Part shown: positions 506-48,806 of the stretch, one piece after another | How positions within the stretch are numbered: the stretch's first letter is position 1 | How the letters are laid out: each line of letters opens with the position of its first letter | Source: Escallonia rubra | Taxonomy: Eukaryota; Streptophyta; Magnoliopsida; Escalloniales; Escalloniaceae | Direction: 5' to 3' | Length of the DNA: 64,000 bases | NCBI GenBank assembly: GCA_033065855.1 | Contig: JAVXUO010001110.1 | Location: forward strand, 372,001-436,000 | The notes under the pieces: model-generated | Told to the model about the DNA's origin: nothing | Databases searched by the model: none | The model's input: the letters and a program-made list of their open reading frames with translations, nothing else | Made by a program: the position numbers and the translations under genes

Positions 506-2527
506 CTAAACAAACAGAGAAAACAGAATGATTATGGGCAAAAGTGGAACCGAAGCAGCATCCCAGGCCGCCGCCGCCGAGGTCGATGAGTCGGCCTTCT
601 CGAACTGGAGGGAGTCGACGGCCAGGGGCATGTTCTCCTGGTCCGGGCTGCACCTCGACTCGTGCGGCGGGTGCGCGCTGTACATGACAGCGCGCAGCAC
701 CGCCGACACCGTCGGGATGAAGGCCGTCTTGTTTCTGGCCAGCAGCCATGTCAGCCCCATCAGCTGACAGTCTCTGTTCAGCATTTTGCTAGCCCGGTCG
801 CCGTTGCTGTCGATGTCGTCATCGTCGCTGTGCTGCTGCGTTCCGTTTTTACCCTCCACCTTTAGCTGCAATTATCAGACACCATAAAAACTGTTACCAA
901 AGTGGCAAAGAGATCGGTGACTAGGGTGGGCTTTAGAGAAGATCTAAATGTATGCAGTTTAGAAGGACAAGGCAATGATGCATGTAACAGGAGGTCACTT
1001 TCTCTATGGCGTTGGCCCCCTACATGGATAGCTCTGTTTTGTAGATCAGAGCAGAAAATGGCTAAACCAGCTTGATACCACTAGCTTTTGCATATCTAGG
1101 AGTCCATTGCTGGGTTTCATTGCGACAATGAATAGGGTGATGATGGGCAAGGATGGAGGTACCATCTTATATCACAACGCAAATTTCAAAATAATTTTGT
1201 AGTTTTTCAGTTGTTCATCAATAGGATGATACCACTAGCTTTGCATATCTAAGTTGCATGTTGAACCCTAGTATATGTTGAATGAAGAAGGAAAAAGAAG
1301 AGGAGCCATTGCTAAGTCTCCAGAATTGATAAATACAGCTAGCCTTACAAAGGCTGTTTGTATGAAAAGCACTTCATTATAGAGCAACAATATCGCCATG
1401 GTTCTAGTACCTTAATTAGCCGATATAATGGCCTCTTTTAGTTGAAGATTCACTCACTACATAAAAAGTTGTTCGATAAAAGGCCTTTTTCACATATAAA
1501 AGCTCTTTATTCTCGCTAATGCAGATAGTGGATGTATACGTGTAGCATAATTATTGTGCAATGATAATAACCTTTTTGTCATCGATGGCATCAAAAAGTT
1601 ATTAAATTCTTTCTAAATGAAACCAAATCGTATCGACTAATTTCACTGCCGCAAACAAAATTATGTATCTACAAATTTTCCAGGGAGTAATGCACTTGAA
1701 ATTTTCATTTTGGTACATCCCAAATTTTGAATTTCAGAAAAGCTTGTGACATATGTGGTGCCAGTGAAAATACTTGATAAGCTAATTTGTGTAGTCCTAT
1801 ATTGTGACAAAAAGAAGTGAAGGGACATTTGCGTCAAATCACAAACAAGAAGCAGTGAAAACTGAAAAGAGAACACACACTGACCGACCTTTTGTAAAGC
1901 TCCGAGACACTTCGTACAACCGGCGTAAGACGAATTCCGGCAATTGTGCTCCAAATTCCTCACCGCCGCAGTTGGAGTCGCGTTTCTCGCCGCCGTGAGG
2001 TTAAACGCCGCGGGGCAGCTCAGGGAGCTGATCTGGTGCAGCCGAATGCCGCAGAAGCACAGGACGGCGTCGCACGACGCGTTCGGCTGGGGAATGTGTA
2101 TGTTCCGGCTCTGCAGCGAGCTCTGCAGCGAGTTGACGCACTTCTGCGAGTCGTCCGGCATCATCGGCATGTCGGACGAGGCCGGGGCCACCGCCGGAAC
2201 CTGCAGAGCCGAGCGGGCGTGGGCGGCGAACAGCCACGCCGCCAGGACTGGACAGCACCTGCTCCGGTCGAGATTGCGGCCGCACGCGGCGTTCACGCCG
2301 CCGAAGAGCTCCGCCGAGAGGTCGAGCCGACAGGTTTGTGCCTCCGTCTGGACCGGAAATGCCGGGACCGTGTTTGGGGTGGAGTAGTCGCCCGGTTTCA
2401 AGGGTTGGGCCGGTTCGGAAAGCATACCGGCCAGAGAGGGATAAAAGAGTGAGGAGATGAAGACGGAAAACAGCAAAGCAGTGATGAGTCCTTCCATTGT
2501 GAAGACTTTCGCTGGGAAGACTCTCAT
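506..2527 (-). CDS. SPARK-domain GPI-anchored protein, At4g28100-like (2 exons)
   Basis: Two exons on the minus strand: 2527-1889 and 865-506. The donor at 1888-1887 follows ...LGALQK in phase 0; the acceptor AG is at 867-866 and exon 2 opens with LKVEGKNG. The product is about 332 aa, or 322 aa if the ATG at 2497 is used; that start places MEGLITALLFSVF directly as the signal peptide and may be the real one. The middle is a cysteine-rich SPARK-type extracellular domain with PAFPVQTEAQTCRLDLSAEL, CGRNLDRSRCCPVLAAWLFA and CFCGIRLHQISSLSCPAAFN, then NRDCQLMGLTWLLARNKTAF and SPDQENMPLAVDSLQFEK. The end is a small-residue stretch (SSTSAAAAWDAAS) and a hydrophobic tail typical of GPI attachment. 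These blocks match my memory of the Arabidopsis At4g28100 family very closely. It is probably a plasma-membrane outer-face protein of unknown biochemical role. The intron is about 1 kb. Confidence 0.93.
866..1888 (-). other. Intron of the At4g28100-like gene
   Basis: A canonical GT...AG intron of 1023 bp, AT-rich. A phrase around 'ataccactagctttgcatatcta' occurs twice (about 1075-1100 and 1228-1252), a local duplication. No mobile element with clear ends is seen. Confidence 0.8.
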
Positions 2528-2863
2528 TTTCACCGGAAGTTTTACTGTTTGGCAACTTGGTTATCAGTGAAGGTCTTTTTGTGCAAAAAGGTAGAGAGAA
2601 ATTGCTCGGAAATCGGAAAGGGGAAAGGAAAACCCACAAGCACACACCTCAGAATAACCTTTTGTAGAGTTTTCCTTTCTGCAGAGAGGAAATCTGATGA
2701 GTACTGCTTTTTTATCTTTCTCCTTTTTCTCGGGGAACGGTGTTTGATGGGTACTTTAATCTATATGGAGGAGATTCAAGAGATATTCAACGAGAGATGT
2801 TAGGATCCTTTTACTTGAAAAAGATGAAGCAATTTAGAAAGAAGAGGGAAAAAAGGGGTAAAA

Positions 2864-7572: not shown

Positions 7573-8650
7573 TTTTTTTTTTGGTGCAACAAAATATATT
7601 AAAAAGCAAGGTTTAATACAAAATATAACTAAGCCCTCACATGGGCAATACCAGCAACATCCTGATCTAACAAAGGGAGCACCACTTCAGGTGGTTGTAT
7701 GGGGTATACAAAAGACTCTATTTGTTGTTTACCCATTTTAGACAGCTGGTCAGCGCAATGGTTGCATTCCCTATAAATATGCACAATACTAGAATTGGTA
7801 ATCCTAACTAAGAACCTAGCATCTTTGATGAGACTGCTGAGAGGATGCCAGATGTTTTCCTTTCCAGAGATCAGCTCAACAACAGTCTTGGAGTCTGACT
7901 CCACCGTCACATTGGTATAGCCTTGGTCCCTTACTGTCTGTATTTCTTTGATTATGCCATGTATTTCAGCTTCCAGGACATTATCCACCAGCTTGTTACC
8001 GAAGTATCCACATATCTATTCTCCTCTGTCATTGCGCAGAAGCCCACCAAATCATCCATTTCCGTTTGCCTCCGCACATCCATCTGTATTGAGTTTGAAA
8101 GTACTTGCAGCAGGCAAACACCAAATGATTATCTTAGGAATTCTGGTTATGTTCTTATCCTTATCCCTGAATGCAATTTCAATATCTTTGGCTTGGTTGA
8201 GAAAAATTTTCCAGGTCACTTCCTTAGGGATGGTAATCCCTTCTATGTTTTCTTTGTTTCTGTTTTTCCAAGTTTGCCAGAGTATGACAATGAAAACATG
8301 TGGCCAAGGTAAGTTAGAGAAGGTAGCCTTGGTTTTCATTTTCAGGTTTCTGTAGAGCCAATCTTTCAAGTTCATACTATCTTCCTCCTCTAGTTGATGT
8401 TTAGCGAATTTTTGTTCCCATAACTCTCGGGCTCTAGGGCATTTCCTTACTATGTGCTCAGTGTTTTTCATGCCAAAACCCTACCTAGCACAACTGGGGT
8501 CCGGGGTGATGTTCCTATTAGCCCGAAGGCTGTTGGAGCAAATCATATCCTGCACACACATTGTTACCCTGTCTTGCATTATCGAAACCCAAGTCTCAAC
8601 GTTCCTTTTATTGGTTCTTGGACTTCCATAAACCCTTTTGTTTTTCCTAA
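7573..8650 (-). mobile_element. 5'-truncated LINE with zinc-binding and RNase H domains
   Basis: Read on the minus strand, a cysteine/histidine motif resembling zf-RVT (GFGMKNTEHIVRKCPRARELW) is followed by a plant-LINE C-terminal RNase H (RVT_3 type): FKLNTDGCAEANGNG, then EAEIHGIIKEI, VESDSKTVVELI and ECNHCADQLSKMG, so the D-E-D-D layout is visible. All of this lies in a single frame interrupted by three stops (8481-8483, 8052-8054, 8016-8018), so it is dead but not frame-shifted. The 3' end is a short poly(A) (T run at 7573-7583 on the plus strand). The upstream limit is not sharp. The reverse transcriptase core is missing, as in a normal 5' truncation. Confidence 0.85.
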
Positions 8651-12445: not shown

Positions 12446-12450
12446 CTACC

Positions 12451-13065
12451 TATTTGCACCACAAAATATATTTTTTCACTAATAAGTTCACTTTTATTAA
12501 ATGCCACTAAATGACATTTACTTTTTTTTTTATTTCTGAAGAGATAATTGAAGATTCAATAAGTGAAAGAAACTAACTTCTAAAAATATGTCCCTATTGA
12601 TAAGGGATAAGTGTGGTTGGTTACTTATTAGTGGGTGATTATTTTCTAAGTGGATAGTTTATCTTTAAGTGGGTAGTTTGTCTTGTAATGATAGTTATTT
12701 TCTACAAAGCATCTAGTATATATAGTGGGTCAAAGAATCATTAATGATAACAACAATCAATCATCAACCAGATAAATCAAGACTTTTTGAAGTCTTTTTC
12801 TTTCTTTTGTTTAGAGGCTTTGCTTCCATCAATAGGAAGTTCAGTTTTCAAACTTGAAAACATTGTTGTGTAAACATTCGCAATCAATCGAAAGCTCTAT
12901 TTTTGTCGTTTATGGCCGCGCAATTGTTTTACTTTCTACTTTTCATTTTCATTTTTCATTTTCAGAGAAGTCCCCAGGCCTTAGGGGCAAAAAAGATCCC
13001 GCACTTTTAATCGATTGTGCCGCGGGCGCACAAATCGATTGTGAGTTTGCCCAGCAGCGCAAACA
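12451..13065 (+). repeat. 5' LTR of the small non-autonomous element
   Basis: It pairs with 14704-15312. It contains 'ctagtatatatagtggg' near 12714-12730 (promoter-like TATA) and the dyad at about 13009-13038. Confidence 0.88.
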
Positions 13066-13342
13066 TTGGCACGCCCAGTGGGACCTTTTTAATCTAAAAG
13101 TGGAAAATGCCAACAATATGTTTCCAAGTAATTCCTTGGAACTTCAGGCCCGATTTGATGAATTAAAGGCCAATTTCTGGATAAATTTGATGAAATGCCG
13201 TACTTCGGCGTCATTATGGCCCAGAAATTTTAAACCATTGTCATTTTCATTTTATATGAAGTCGATAGTGGATGATTTTATGAAATTTTGGTATGATCTA
13301 ATGGATTGCATGGATGCAAACCATGATTAGCCTATTCTACCA

Positions 13343-13831
13343 TTGATTTTGGTAGATACCTCCAATGAATTACATCGGTTTGAAAACAATATTAAAACCT
13401 TGATGGGAGTAGATCATCTATCTTTTTTAGAAGATGTACAAAATGAATTAAAAGAATTCTGGGCTTTAATTCATAGAGTAAGGTGGATGAGGAAGGAAGT
13501 GAAATTATTCATTTCCACACTTGCTGAAGTTGAAAAGTTACAAACCAATAGTCATTCTTTGACTATTGCAAATGAGATGATGCCAAACATGGCTGAAACA
13601 AGACAATATTTAGAAGATGAATACAACCAATTCATGGTTAGTATAAATAACATGACTATCTATCAAGAGGAGTCATTTTACAATATCCAACTTCAAGTGT
13701 TATCTCCAGATAATTCAAGTGAGTTATTCAATGACTTGCGTGAAAAATGCATATTGTGGGGAAATCATTTGAATCCATTAATACAACTGGCTAAAACTTA
13801 CACCAAAAGTAGTGTAAGTAAGTGTAAGTAA
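13343..13831 (+). CDS. Open frame in the small LTR element (162 codons), unknown protein
   Basis: An acidic, helical-looking frame with stretches such as FLEDVQNELKEFWALIHRV and ELFNDLREKCILWGNHLNPL. I recognise no Gag zinc knuckle, protease or polymerase motif. It could be a diverged Gag-like segment or sequence acquired by the element. Its codon use is AT-rich like its surroundings. It may not be expressed. Confidence 0.35.
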   Translation: MILVDTSNELHRFENNIKTLMGVDHLSFLEDVQNELKEFWALIHRVRWMRKEVKLFISTLAEVEKLQTNSHSLTIANEMMPNMAETRQYLEDEYNQFMVSINNMTIYQEESFYNIQLQVLSPDNSSELFNDLREKCILWGNHLNPLIQLAKTYTKSSVSKCK

Positions 13832-13850
13832 TTTTCGTAAAATCGATATC

Positions 13851-14363
13851 GTGCCAAAAATGACAGAAAAAGTTGAACAATCATGTTCATTCTCATATGG
13901 GATTGATATGTCAAAAGGAGATTTAATCGATATGGCTGGGGGGCAAGTTTGCAAGCCTATTATGGTTGAAAGCAAAAAAGAGCCTCTTTCATGCGGTGTG
14001 CATAGCGAGCCAACCGTGGCTATCGATTCAAACTTCCCTAATATTAGTGAGTTTGAAGTTTTTGACACCATGAAAAATGATGAAGAACATATATTTTGGG
14101 AGCCAATCAGTGTTATATTTTTTGGAGAAGGATACCCTATTTGGGTTTGTGGAGCTCACCAAGGTAGAGTATTAATTCAATGGTTATTAAGAACTGCAAC
14201 TATAGTCAAATATTATTTGTTTTATTTTTATCCATACACTTTGAAATTAAGAAATGCTCAATCGAATGGCTTATCAGTAGCCATTTTATATGCTGATTGG
14301 GTTAACGGCTTGGCCAAAAAGGGTCATGATTTGTTTAGTGGCTTGGCCAACTATGGTCATTGA
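13851..14363 (+). CDS. Open frame in the small LTR element (170 codons), unknown protein
   Basis: It begins about 20 bp after the previous frame. It contains MSKGDLIDMAGGQVCKPIMV, FFGEGYPIWVCGAHQGRVLI and a tail ending FSGLANYGH. I know no family with these words. The combination with the preceding frame inside a helper-dependent LTR element is unusual. Confidence 0.35.
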   Translation: MPKMTEKVEQSCSFSYGIDMSKGDLIDMAGGQVCKPIMVESKKEPLSCGVHSEPTVAIDSNFPNISEFEVFDTMKNDEEHIFWEPISVIFFGEGYPIWVCGAHQGRVLIQWLLRTATIVKYYLFYFYPYTLKLRNAQSNGLSVAILYADWVNGLAKKGHDLFSGLANYGH

Positions 14364-14394
14364 CACTGGAATATGGAAATTTTAAGCCAATAGA

Positions 14395-14670
14395 TGGCTT
14401 ATCGATCGTGAAATGCTATTGATCGTGAGAGGCTATCAATTGTGAAAGGCTATATATATCAATCGTGAAAGTCTATCGATAGTGAAAAAATACGTTCCCT
14501 TTGAAAAGTATGACTCTTCACAATCGATTGTGAAAAATACAAGCCTATCAATCGTGAAAGGCTATCAATCGCTATCGATCTTGAAAGGCTATCGATCGCT
14601 ATCGATCTTGAAAGTCTATCGATAGTGAGAAAATACTACCCCTTTAAAAAGACACGACTCTTCGCAATTT
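14395..14670 (+). repeat. ATCGAT/GTGAAAGGCTAT repeat array before the polypurine tract
   Basis: Short degenerate units of the form 'tatcgatcgtgaaaggc' recur about ten times. They are organised as two higher-order blocks, each closing with 'tctatcgatagtga(a/g)aaaatac' plus 'gactctt' (ending near 14525 and 14670). The same ATCGATTGTG word appears in the dyad of both LTRs. Confidence 0.8.
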
Positions 14671-14703
14671 TTAAGTATTCAATTGCTTGAGCCAGGGGGG
14701 CAA

Positions 14704-15312
14704 TGTTTGCACCACAAAATATATTTTTTCACTAATAAGTTCAATTTGATTAAATGCCACTAAATGGCATTTACTTTTTTTATTTCTGAAGAGAAAATGG
14801 AATATTCAAGAAGTGAAATAAAGCAACTTCTGAAAATGTGTCGCTAAGGGATAAGTATGGTTGGTTACTTAGTAGTGGGTGATTATTTTCTATAAGTGGG
14901 TAGTTTATCTTTAAGTGGGTAGTTTGTCTTGTAATGGTAATTATTTTCTACAAAGCCTCTAGTATATATAGTGGGTCAAAGAATCATTAATGATAACAAC
15001 AATCAATCATCAACCAAACAAATCAAGAGTTTTTGAAGTCTTTTTCTTTCTTTTGTTTAGAGGCTTTTGCTTTCATCGATAAGAAGTTCAGTTTTCAGAC
15101 TTGAAAACATTGCTGTGTAAACATTCACAATCAATCGAAAGCTCTCTCTTTGTCATTTATGGGTGCGCAGTCTTTTACATTTAATTTTCATCTGTTCGTC
15201 GAAGTTTCTCGCTTTCAGGGAAGTCTTCAGGACCGAGGGGCAAAAAAGATCCCATACTTTTAATCGATTGTGCCGCCGTCGCACAAATCGATAGTGAGTT
15301 TGCCCACAAACA
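14704..15312 (+). repeat. 3' LTR of the small non-autonomous element
   Basis: It starts TGTTTGCACCACAAAA, directly after the purine tract, and ends ...CAAACA before the TSD CTACC. It is collinear with the 5' LTR apart from small differences. Confidence 0.88.
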
Positions 15313-15317
15313 CTACC

Positions 15318-36240: not shown

Positions 36241-36779
36241 AAGAAGTCTAGCATCCCCGGGAATTCCAAATCTGAGGAAGGATTATCTTTTTGTTCCAAC
36301 TATTTTAACTTGGGCCATTGTCTTTCTCTCTCTTGAGGTTTACCCTTCTTATTATTTTCTTTCTTCTTTTTTTGTTTATTGGGAATCTTTAATGGAGTTA
36401 CAGTGATAACCATCAAATCTTCTACAATTGCTTTCGAATCCCACTCCATTCTTTCATTTCTTTATAAGGGTCACTTCCTGGTTGGTTATTTCCACCATGA
36501 GTCTCTGTGGTGATTTCTATGTTATAGCGTCGTGTTGCCAGCTCCTAAAAAGTACAAGGTTTGTTACCTTGAGCAACATAGAAAATAAAAAAAATACATG
36601 CCACGCATGAACATTTCCATAGCAGAGGCTTCCAATAGTCTTGAATTTCTTTGCAATCCAAGCTTGCGGCTCGCCTCCTGTTGGTCTAGTCCATCACAGG
36701 CTTCTCTTCTCGTTACTTAGTGTTAGTAAGCTCTAACATGCTCACGGAGCGGCGAATACTATAAAATCGATTTAAAAAC

Positions 36780-37500
36780 TCATGCTCCATTTCTTCCTAA
36801 TAATATATAAACTTTAACTCTAAGTAGTCTACCAATAGAATGCATTCCCTTTAAGAGATCGAACAAATTGTTTAACAAAGAGGTCTGCTTCGGCTCTGGC
36901 ATAATTGCAAGCCTCGATGAAATAGGCGACGTGCTGCCTTGGTTGCCCTTTCTGTCAAACTGCTGAAACTTACATGGTTGGTACCCGGTTGACATTCTTA
37001 TGTTGTCAATTTGGGCTTTTAAGTACATTAGATTGTTGCGAGAGGATCCTCCATTTTGAGCCTTGATTTTCTGTAGCATACCTTGTGGTTGCTGGACTGG
37101 CAAAGACGCGATGGAGGTGGGCTTGCTCTCTTTGTTTTCATATCCACCGGAAGTGGACGCTTTTTGATACCCTGATATAATTCTTCTTGACGCCCATTGG
37201 ACTCTTCACTAGGTTGTAACTTCAACCTATTCATCAGAGTCACAAATCTGAAAATCCTTTTCCTTTACGGTCTGAGTTAGCTTTTCAAGGGCACAAGATA
37301 TAGGAGCTAGTTGCCCCTCCATTAACATGGATCCAGTCATAAAAAATTTGCACGGTATCAATTTGGGCTCCTTGGGGAGTATATCTATTGTAAGCCAGTG
37401 CTAGAATCGGCATTTGAGGCATACTTGGATGACTGTGGAGACAATTCATGATGGCACTTTCTTCTAACACAAAATGTGGAATTTCGACACCCAAACCCTG
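36780..37500 (-). mobile_element. Ty3/gypsy gag fossil
   Basis: On the minus strand, words such as MSTGYQPCKFQQFDRKGNQG followed by a LFDLLKGM-like stretch match the conserved plant gypsy Gag core (usually GYQPPKFQQFDGKGNP ... FVRSLKG). It is broken, with several breaks. No LTR boundary was assigned. Confidence 0.65.
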
Positions 37501-38214
37501 CCTTTCTCAAAAACCAAAACAACGACTTCCTTGAATTGAACAAGTAGCTTAGTCGGTGGCTTGGAAACTGGTGCCATCATCCGATTGGGGATAGTAATTT
37601 CATCCTTCGATTCATGGGGCCGGTCGGAGTGCTGCTCAAACTGCTTCCTGTGGCGGCACTTTTCACGGTTATTGCATTAGCTTGAGCTTGTTGTATTTTC
37701 ATTGGTGCCATTGACATGTTGAAGGTTCTTTTAAAATCTTCTACAAGGAAATAAATGGAACAGAATCACCGCAAGAGGATACGTTTTTAATGACGGAAAT
37801 TTTCCTCACAAAAAGTTTTAGTGACAGAAAATTTCGTCACACGTTTCCATAGCGTAAAGTGTCGTCATTAAAAAGTTAGTGATGGAATTCAGTGACCCTG
37901 TCACGCCATCGACGACAGAATGGAAACCTTTAGTGATGAAATTTTTGTCACTAAAGGTATTTTTTATTTCAAAAAATAAAAAATTTATATAACATAATTG
38001 GTGACGGATAATTCCGTCACATAAAAGGTAAGTATTCCGTCAGTAATCCCTTTTTGCAATGGATTTGGCCGTCGCTATTAGTTTGCAAATTTTTTGATTC
38101 AATGCACATAATGACAAATCATAATCGTCGCTAAAATTTAAAAAACAAAAGAAGAATAATTTTGCATGCTCTTTTCAAATTCCCTTTTTTTTCAAATCTG
38201 TCTACAACAAATCC

Positions 38215-46988: not shown

Positions 46989-48806
46989 TTACATAAAATT
47001 GTCAAAGTCTAGACCTTCCGGAATATGAAACTTTAGAAGGTTGCTGCAGTAGCTTTCCATTTCATCCTCAGTGCTGCTGTTGTTTACTGCAGATGGCGAA
47101 TTCAAGGGTGTTGCACTTGATAGAGGCGTTGACGTAAAGGAGCCAAAGCTGAAGTTCTGGCTGTTGTTGTTCAGGGCTTGATCAGACCCACAATTGACAT
47201 AATTTTGTTCTGAAACCAAACTTTCAGTTAAAGGTGAAGGTGCAAGATTTTCTTGGAAATTTTGGGAACCCAAGTTCGTTAAAGCCCAGGGAACGTTCCC
47301 TTGCATGAGTTGTGCTTGATTGGAAAGCGGTGCGCATGAAACACTTGACTGGGTGCAATTTTGAATTTCTTGAGTGAGAGTTTGGAGCTGGCTAGATTGC
47401 ATTATTGGGGCTTGGTTTTGCAGTTCAGCGTTGCATAGTTGGTCTCCTTGGATTTTCTGTAATAATAACTCCGGACTTTCTTGATAAGATGCTAGGAAAT
47501 TGGCAAGCCTAACCACTTCTGGATTTACTAATGTTTGAAGGCCAAGGAAATTTGAAAGGCTTAACTGAGCTGAGTTGAGAATGGATGATAGGTCTAAAAG
47601 ATCCATACGAGGACTATGAGTCACCGGATCGATACCCATCTTGAGGAGCCTTTTTCTGATGTGGGTGTTCCAATAATTCTTGATTTCGTTATCAGTTCTT
47701 CCAGGCAAGCGAGCTGCAATAGCTGACCACCTTTAAACCAGGGGGAAAAAAACGTAGCGTTAGAAGGAATACTAGATACTTCAATGAAGTCACGAAAGTT
47801 TCTTCTGCAAAACCCTAATCATAACAAAATTGCTGCAACCCCAACTACCAGAGGCGGAACCAGGAATTATTTTTAGGGGGTGCAAAAATTATATCGAATT
47901 CACCAAAAAAATTTATTAGTAAAATAATATTAAATTTTTTTTAAGAACTTATTTTAAATCTCTATATAATCACTGAAATCAAACTGAAATTAAATTAACC
48001 AAACATATATTCTAAACCTTTATATAATCAATGAAATTAAACTAAAATTAACATATTAAACTTAAATTAACATATATAATCACTGAAATTAAACTAAAAT
48101 TAACATATTTATACATATGTTAATTTTAGTTTACATCAGCATATAACATCACTGGAAAAAAAAATTCTTTCAAAAGTTCAAGGGGTTTCAGCTCCCCCTT
48201 GTTACCATGTAGTTCCGCCAATGCCAACTACGCAAAGAAAACTAACAAAAAAAAAAAAAAACATTTTATTCTACAAGACTGTTAATAATCTGAAACAGTA
48301 GCTCCGCTAAAAGTAGTATCAGAGTGCATGTATTAGAATCTGTGGCAGGGTTTGAGCAAGGTTGAAATGAAGTGCAGACAATTATACAGAAAAAAAAAGT
48401 GCAAGAAGAGGAAAAATAATCTTTCTTACTTGTTCCCCAGAATACTGTGTAGTTGAATTATGGTCTCCTCTTCTTCAAATGAAAATCTCCCCCTCTTGAT
48501 ATCAGGCCTCAGATAGTTTGTCCATCGAAGGCGACAACTCTTTCCACATCTTTGAAGCCCTATACGAGCAATAAACACACCGGTTAGAACAAAACCCTGA
48601 TATAGAACTTGTAAATCTCTACAACGAAATACTTTGCAGTCGATTTAACAACGTGATGCAGTTGATCGCATACCGGCATGTTTTGGAAGGCTTCGCCAGT
48701 TTCCAGGCCCATGCATCTCTATGTGTTGCATGAGTTTGGAATCCTCTTCTTGTGTCCATGGACCTTTTTTTAGTCCATTTTTATCACAACAAGGTGTTCT
48801 TCCCAT
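46989..48806 (-). CDS. R2R3-MYB transcription factor, MYB41/74/102-like (3 exons)
   Basis: Exons 48806-48674 (133 bp), 48559-48430 (130 bp) and 47730-46989 (742 bp) encode 334 aa; 133 and 130 bp are the standard sizes for R2R3-MYB exons 1 and 2. Exon 1 starts [20 protein letters not shown]; exon 2 supplies [20 protein letters not shown] through the [16 protein letters not shown] helix; exon 3 starts [20 protein letters not shown]. The R2 and R3 tryptophans are kept (R3 lacks the first, as usual). No bHLH-binding signature is seen. After the repeats, [20 protein letters not shown] marks the MYB41/MYB74/MYB102/MYB39 group (subgroup 11), known for roles in stress response and suberin or cuticle control. 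The tail is Gln/Ser/Asn-rich with an acidic end. Nuclear by family. All introns are GT-AG; nothing is broken. Confidence 0.95.
47849..48223. mobile_element. hAT-type MITE (375 bp) in MYB intron 2
   Basis: The ends CAGAGGCGGAACC and (inverted) CATTGGCGGAACTAC are flanked by an exact 8 bp TSD CCAACTAC (47841-47848 and 48224-48231). Same family as 41573-42547, but with an AT-rich interior. It lies between the donor and acceptor of MYB intron 2 and leaves both intact. Confidence 0.9.

What the first reader, a model, noticed from the sequence alone, without database searches (positions are those of the whole stretch)
12451..15312. Small LTR element with unfamiliar open frames and no polymerase
Ends, TSD (CTACC), primer site, purine tract and two LTRs are all visible, yet the 1.6 kb interior has no retroelement enzyme. 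It has instead two back-to-back open frames of 162 and 170 codons that match nothing I know. It is too large for a TRIM and much smaller than a typical LARD, and it may be a new non-autonomous family with its own protein(s).
Basis: partly seen in the sequence, partly recalled or inferred. Interest (0 to 1): 0.72.

Follow-up and report, generated by a model that had tools for sequence, protein, structure and literature searches.

The report
Small plant retrotransposon with orphan gene
This is an old, broken copy of a small plant LTR retrotransposon family that lacks the usual copying enzymes, carries its own unfamiliar ~373-codon gene, and seems to borrow the machinery of larger Ty3/Tat-type elements in the same genome.

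Summary
The element is real: 12451-15312, TSD CTACC, LTRs of 615 and 609 bp (K2P 0.097), primer site, purine tract. It belongs to a multi-copy family of ~2.8-3.05 kb in this 566 Mb genome. The window copy is dead. The ORF has no significant Pfam or PDB match and no Gag match.

The primer site is an exact 18-nt complement of tRNA-Arg(UCU), shared with Tat-type elements. At one locus, C957, this family's LTR abuts, at the primer site, the leader of a gag/protease-bearing, probably Tat family, as expected if two RNAs recombined in one particle. Best reading: a Tat-dependent, non-autonomous family with an orphan ORF. Selection on the ORF is weak: shared stops are depleted (7 of 295 variants against 37 of 541 in shifted frames), but dN/dS does not separate from shifted frames. 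New variant of a known kind.

The parts
12446..12450 (.). 5' copy of target-site duplication CTACC
12451..13065 (+). 5' LTR (615 bp; first bases TA instead of TG)
12717..12724 (+). TATA-like TATATATA in the LTR, probable Pol II promoter core (inference)
   Evidence: the motif TATATA[GC]T[GA]G lies 329-366 nt before a fixed point of the primer site in 8 of 18 elements looked at
13067..13084 (+). Primer site TGGCACGCCCAGTGGGAC, exact complement of tRNA-Arg(UCU) 3' end plus CCA
13118..13330 (+).
13331..13831 (+).
13818..14363 (+).
14294..14359 (+). Two 33-nt direct repeats (79% alike)
   Evidence: family D13
14397..14640 (+). Short imperfect repeats around CTATCGATCGTGAAAG, 3' of the ORF
14694..14703 (+). 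Purine tract AGGGGGG followed by CAA, directly before the 3' LTR
14704..15312 (+). 3' LTR (609 bp)
15313..15317 (.). 3' copy of target-site duplication CTACC

Best explanation
The window holds a dead member of a non-autonomous LTR family (here called N) that depends on Tat-clade Ty3/gypsy elements. Working model: N RNA is transcribed from its LTR, is packaged with Gag and Pol made by a Tat-type element, primes reverse transcription with tRNA-Arg(UCU) at the shared primer site, and is integrated with a 5-bp TSD. N keeps its own LTRs and has, in place of gag-pol, one ~373-codon ORF directly after the primer site. Shown: structure, copies, shared primer site, similarity of the LTR end to gag-bearing elements, and one locus where an N LTR abuts a foreign, probably Tat-type, leader. 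Inferred: co-packaging and trans-mobilisation. Unknown: what the protein does; most likely an accessory ORF carried along, with at most weak selection.
For: Same anatomy in the copies: LTR start to LTR start about 2.1-2.5 kb where both starts were found; 13 of 28 elements measured, the window included, have an exact 5-bp TSD, with K2P 0.023-0.097. Purine tract plus LTR start: 106 places with up to 2 mismatches, control 0. Primer site with up to 1 mismatch: 215 places, control 0. One of these is L071, with Retrotrans_gag, RVT_1, RNase H and a second RNase H-type domain; an RT match lies 4.4-6.7 kb downstream, same strand, of the primer sites at C418 (L071), C543, C813, C814 and C1293. The last 104-127 nt of the LTR are 76-83% identical to L070/L073; L073 has stretches similar to the protease (E 6e-11) and gag (E 9e-7) of L071. 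C957: N-type LTR (85%, whole query), exact primer site at 246059, then a leader 91-96% identical to 33 other places, a protease match 3.21 kb downstream, the spacing also seen at 13 other primer sites, then an N ORF fragment and an N-type purine tract plus LTR start. ORF open from ATG to stop in 5 of 52 distinct copies and in L081.
Against: No intact autonomous element with the N LTR was found. RT was not located in the family that gave C957 its leader (one search scored 150 of 5377 candidates). Pfam does not recognise the L073 gag or protease stretch (best E 0.15); the Tat assignment of that family rests on similarity to L071. C957 was read for 350 letters only, the rest is match coordinates, and it also holds an inverted protease piece, so it is rearranged. 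One recombinant could also be post-insertion recombination, gene conversion or an assembly error.
Confidence: 0.7

Rival explanations
1. Simple internal-deletion derivative: N arose by deleting gag-pol from an autonomous element that had the same ORF as an extra ORF after the primer site (as some Ogre-type elements have extra ORFs), and the ORF is remnant sequence that now decays neutrally.
For: Most Ogre/Tat/Athila elements were found to have extra ORFs, and of extra-ORF proteins overall only 21.4% had known domains (PMC6317226, passages). dN/dS does not separate from shifted frames (0.82 against 0.70 and 1.35); codon positions 1 and 3 vary about alike.
Against: No larger element with this ORF was seen; the three leaders of the L070/L073/C957 type read so far share with N little beyond the primer-site region. 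Shared stop codons are depleted in frame.
Confidence: 0.35
2. The ORF is a fast-evolving Gag or Gag-like helper, so that N is a TR-GAG-type element with a gag too diverged to recognise.
For: Position right after the primer site; a poor single-sequence model of the middle part is nearly all helical; a TR-GAG element with one gag ORF was seen to transpose (PMC8704663, passages).
Against: No Retrotrans_gag or zinc-knuckle match at E 1 in any of 15 members; no profile similarity to the gag-protease ORF of L071 (hhalign probability 0.1%); weak constraint, unlike what I would expect of a needed capsid protein. The model has mean pLDDT 48.7 and cannot carry weight.
Confidence: 0.12
3. The ORF is a captured host gene fragment.
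For: Orphan sequence without detected relation to gag-pol; gene capture by plant transposons is reviewed in PMC13317346 (search listing only).
Against: No host relative was noticed in the tblastn lists, but only 150 candidates were scored in each and I did not check each hit for its surroundings.
Confidence: 0.15

Closest known systems
Tat clade (Ogre/Retand) Ty3/gypsy elements of plants
   Same: Primer site shared with the Tat-layout element L071; tRNA-Arg is among the primers of the non-chromoviruses, to which Tat belongs, and extra ORFs are common in the Ogre/Tat/Athila group (PMC6317226, passages); repeat arrays before the 3' LTR are common in Retand (PMC11963269, abstract and passages)
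   Different: N has no recognised gag or pol; its LTR resembles L070/L073 only in the last 104-127 nt; its ORF has no PMD, Transposase_28 or Athila ORF-1 match at E 1
TR-GAG elements
   Same: small LTR element with one ORF, presumed to move in trans (PMC8704663, passages)
   Different: ORF has no Gag match
LARD and TRIM
   Same: non-autonomous, no pol
   Different: LARDs are larger and non-coding, TRIMs much smaller (sizes recalled); N is ~2.8-3.05 kb and has an ORF
Retrosat2 ORF0 (rice)
   Same: an extra ORF of unassigned function, divergent between homologs (PMC3485330, abstract)
   Different: Retrosat2 also has ORF1 encoding the enzymes
Arabidopsis Tat1 and maize Zeon-1 small elements
   Same: small Tat-related elements without pol (recalled, not tested)
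   Different: their ORFs are described as gag-related (recalled); no sequence comparison was made here, and the one paper search for them found nothing

Membership tests
LTR retrotransposon | two LTRs, TSD, primer site, purine tract | tested here: met
LTR retrotransposon | several copies with the same ends | tested here: met
Non-autonomous LTR element | no gag-pol in the interior | tested here: met
   Interior of ~1.6-1.8 kb is too short for pol; Pfam scans of window frames and of 15 ORF members found none. C957 is the exception and looks recombinant
Tat-clade dependence | same primer tRNA as Tat elements in the same genome | tested here: met
Tat-clade dependence | autonomous element with the same LTR over full length | tested here: inconclusive
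   only C957; not shown intact, RT not shown
Tat clade (membership of N itself) | RT/RH/INT phylogeny and aRH domain | not testable with these tools
   N encodes none of these proteins
TR-GAG | ORF with a Gag domain | tested here: not met
TRIM | very short element, no ORF | tested here: not met
   2862 bp and a 373-codon ORF in the family; size limit recalled
LARD | long LTRs and long non-coding interior | tested here: not met
   LTR ~600 bp, interior ~1.6-1.8 kb; definition recalled
Protein-coding gene under selection | dN/dS well below 1 and below control frames | tested here: inconclusive

The most novel reading that the evidence does not exclude
The orphan ORF is a new kind of helper protein of a parasitic retrotransposon, made by the non-autonomous family and acting with a Tat element's Gag and Pol (for example in packaging or in favouring N RNA), kept open in the lineages that multiply while the individual copies decay.
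Probability: 0.15. Interest if true: 0.65.

Novelty: new variant of a known kind. Interest (0 to 1): 0.42.

Why it matters
Non-autonomous LTR families are usually non-coding or carry a recognisable gag (recalled). A family that multiplied with an orphan ORF, and left a locus joining its LTR to a probably Tat-type interior exactly at the shared primer site, gives a concrete host-parasite pair to test: who packages whom, and what a parasite's own protein adds.

Tried and rejected
Two separate proteins: rejected, other copies have one continuous ORF. Gag by Pfam, PDB sequence search and hhalign: nothing convincing. The lowest Pfam E-value seen was 0.0021, for a 68-residue piece of the window ORF against PF02404 (stem cell factor), below that family's cut-off; the intact ORF gives 0.12 against it, so I take it as chance. 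The one PDB line has E 0.2. Viral contigs: 31 pattern matches, none confirmed by tblastn. Structure: two single-sequence AlphaFold2 models, mean pLDDT 33.2 and 48.7, too poor for a fold search; none was run. By eye, no PF03732 hit (150 scored of 4170) lay just downstream of a listed primer site (100 of 215 listed), and no RT hit (150 scored of 5377) lay just upstream of a listed N-type LTR start (100 of 106 listed). L069 and L071 as full-LTR partner: only the primer-site region matches N. L070 and L073: only the end of the LTR matches. NG86 gave 0.38-0.46 among the three closest intact copies, but values in the same table run from 0.37 to 1.75, and the codon model with control frames does not support a strong claim. 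A sister LTR start (TGTTTGCACCAACAAATA) was seen at several places and not followed.

Literature: searches. Seen of the papers: PMC6317226 passages, PMC10552921 passages, PMC3485330 abstract and outline, PMC11963269 abstract, outline and passages, PMC7264820 one passage, PMC8704663 passages; PMC1950507 and PMC13317346 search listing only. In what I saw there was no description of this ORF; the library holds only part of the literature and the plant was not identified, so this is no proof of novelty.

Full report
Place and anatomy. The window is contig C1162:372001-436000 of a 566 Mb genome in 3222 contigs, a plant by its gene and element content (inference). The element is at 12451-15312: LTRs 12451-13065 and 14704-15312, TSD CTACC on both sides, primer site at 13067-13084, purine tract AGGGGGG plus CAA directly before the 3' LTR. 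The LTR pair differs at 54 of 598 aligned sites, K2P 0.097; at 1.3e-8 per site and year (rate recalled) that is about 3.7 million years.

Family. The 3' LTR finds 40 matches in 40 scored of 853 candidates: itself, then 84-88%. ORF fragments find 152 and 156 matches, with 150 scored of 241 and of 349 candidates. Counts are lower bounds. Where both LTR starts were found in a fetched locus they are about 2.1-2.5 kb apart. Of 28 elements measured, the window included, 13 have an exact 5-bp TSD and 4 more match at 4 of 5 bases; in the other 11 an end was cut or mis-set or the bases did not match. Among the 13, total length is 2.79-3.05 kb and LTR K2P 0.023-0.097, the window being the most diverged. 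The purine tract with the LTR start (25 nt) occurs at 106 places with up to 2 mismatches, control 0.

The ORF. It is open from ATG to stop in 5 of 52 distinct copies (L025, L028, L033, L041 with 373 codons, L046 with 368) and in L081. In the window it is broken by a premature stop at 13328-13330, a frame change near 13818 and another near the end. A frame of 373 codons did not occur in 3000 Markov sequences of the L028 interior. No Pfam family reached significance in 15 aligned members (best E 0.039); a 68-residue window piece gave E 0.0021 to PF02404, under that family's cut-off, while the intact ORF gives 0.12. No PDB sequence matched significantly, and hhalign against the gag-protease ORF of L071 gave 0.1% probability.

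Selection. 52 copies were given and 51 aligned (L007 dropped). Diversity at codon positions 1, 2, 3 is 0.140, 0.107, 0.136; the ORF as a whole is less diverse (0.128) than the region after it (0.168). Variants shared by 4 or more copies are stops in 7 of 295 cases in frame, against 18 of 276 and 19 of 265 in the two shifted frames (Fisher p 0.005); among singletons it is 31 of 572 in frame, near the neutral expectation of 6.4%. Only four codons carry a stop in 4 or more of the 51 copies. Against this, the drop in N/S from singletons to shared variants is larger in one shifted frame (4.47 to 1.9) than in the true one (3.7 to 2.43); frame-breaking deletions shared by 2 or more copies are not rarer in the ORF (8 of 12) than after it (16 of 24); and a codon model on 14 open-frame sequences gives omega 0.82 in frame (2.2 log units better than omega 1 with kappa fixed at 3.5) but 0.70 and 1.35 in shifted frames; GY+F gave 0.67. 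NG86 among L025, L028 and L041 is 0.38-0.46, other pairs 0.37-1.75. More distant relatives mostly show position 2 slowest and 1 and 3 alike. So the frame seems to have been kept open in multiplying lineages, but a functional protein is not proven. More diverged elements with recognisable ORF pieces exist (L072, L082, L087).

Primer and kin. The 20-mer expected at the 3' end of the tRNA gene occurs without mismatch at four places; three were fetched, and ARAGORN calls tRNA-Arg(TCT) in 2 of 3. The primer site is thus an 18-nt complement of tRNA-Arg(UCU). It occurs at 215 places with up to 1 mismatch, 63 of them exact, control 0. L071, one of these, has Retrotrans_gag, RVT_1, RT_RNaseH and a second RNase H-type (RVT_3) domain, the order RH then aRH given for angiosperm Tat elements; tRNA-Arg is listed among the primers of non-chromoviruses (PMC6317226, passages). 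RT matches lie 4.4-6.7 kb downstream of five listed primer sites (C418, C543, C813, C814, C1293). L070 and L073 share the last 104-127 nt of the LTR with N at 76-83%, and the primer site (mutated in L073), but not the rest of the LTR. L073 stretches resemble the protease (29% over 94 residues, E 6e-11) and gag (36% over 50, E 9e-7) of L071 in single comparisons; Pfam gives at best E 0.15 for the protease and nothing for the gag.

C957. At C957:245468-246046 lies an LTR 85% identical to the window LTR over the whole query. It is followed by an exact primer site at 246059 and by a leader that is 73% identical to L070 over 349 nt, while N copies match only its first 29-46 nt (LTR end and primer site). 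The leader has 40 matches in 40 scored of 105 candidates: itself, 33 at 91-96% and 6 at 82-87%. A match to the L073 protease (71%) lies at 249288-249638, 3.21 kb from the primer site; a spacing of 3.20-3.22 kb also holds at 13 other primer sites (C28, C54, C94, C358, C504, C623, C669, C694, C1283, C1505, C1785, C2811, C3192), while some others have 2.96-5.0 kb (for example C216, C1521, C1995, C3018, C3203). Further on in C957 come an N ORF fragment at 250576-250809 (64%), an inverted protease piece at 251106-251402 and an exact N-type purine tract plus LTR start at 252857. A two-part pattern, N-type LTR motif plus this leader, is found once in the genome, at C957, control 0; the pattern is exact, so mutated copies would be missed and I do not know how many donor copies carry its second half. 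N-type LTRs at both ends, foreign interior on the 5' side joined at the shared primer site, and N sequence again on the 3' side are what template switching between two co-packaged RNAs would leave (inference from the known steps of reverse transcription). Template switching in plant LTR elements has been proposed (PMC1950507, search listing only).

Conclusion. A Tat-dependent non-autonomous family with an orphan ORF is the best-supported reading; the mobilising proteins and the ORF's role are inferred or unknown. A gag-coding non-autonomous element (TR-GAG) has been seen to transpose (PMC8704663, passages), and extra ORFs are common in the Ogre/Tat/Athila group (PMC6317226, passages). What is seen here is a variant of these known kinds.

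Noticed in passing
window 36492-37742 (- strand): Stretch 65% identical over 1345 nt to the leader and gag of the Tat-type element L071; a 141-codon frame in it has no Pfam match at E 0.01.
   Followed up: partly
window 46989-47732 (- strand): Open frame with a partial Myb DNA-binding domain at its start (E 3.6e-8), a plant MYB-type gene.
   Followed up: no
window 1661-2560 (- strand): Stop-to-stop frame of 299 codons without Pfam match at E 0.01; possibly part of a cysteine-rich extracellular protein (own reading).
   Followed up: no
window 8052-8480 (- strand): Frame that reads like the end of a LINE reverse transcriptase/RNase H region (own reading; no Pfam match at E 0.01).
   Followed up: no
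C656:16521-22782 of G000: N-type LTR starts and primer sites in a row with interiors of about 1.45-1.5 kb and no ORF hit listed: perhaps a tandem array or an ORF-less subfamily.
   Followed up: no
   Followed up: no
C1621, C1786, C1792, C1796 of G000: Sister LTR start TGTTTGCACCAACAAATA directly after the same purine tract, perhaps the LTR of a further related family.
   Followed up: no
L046, L075, L077, L079: A subfamily in which a middle segment of the ORF reads as a different stretch, in frame.
   Followed up: no
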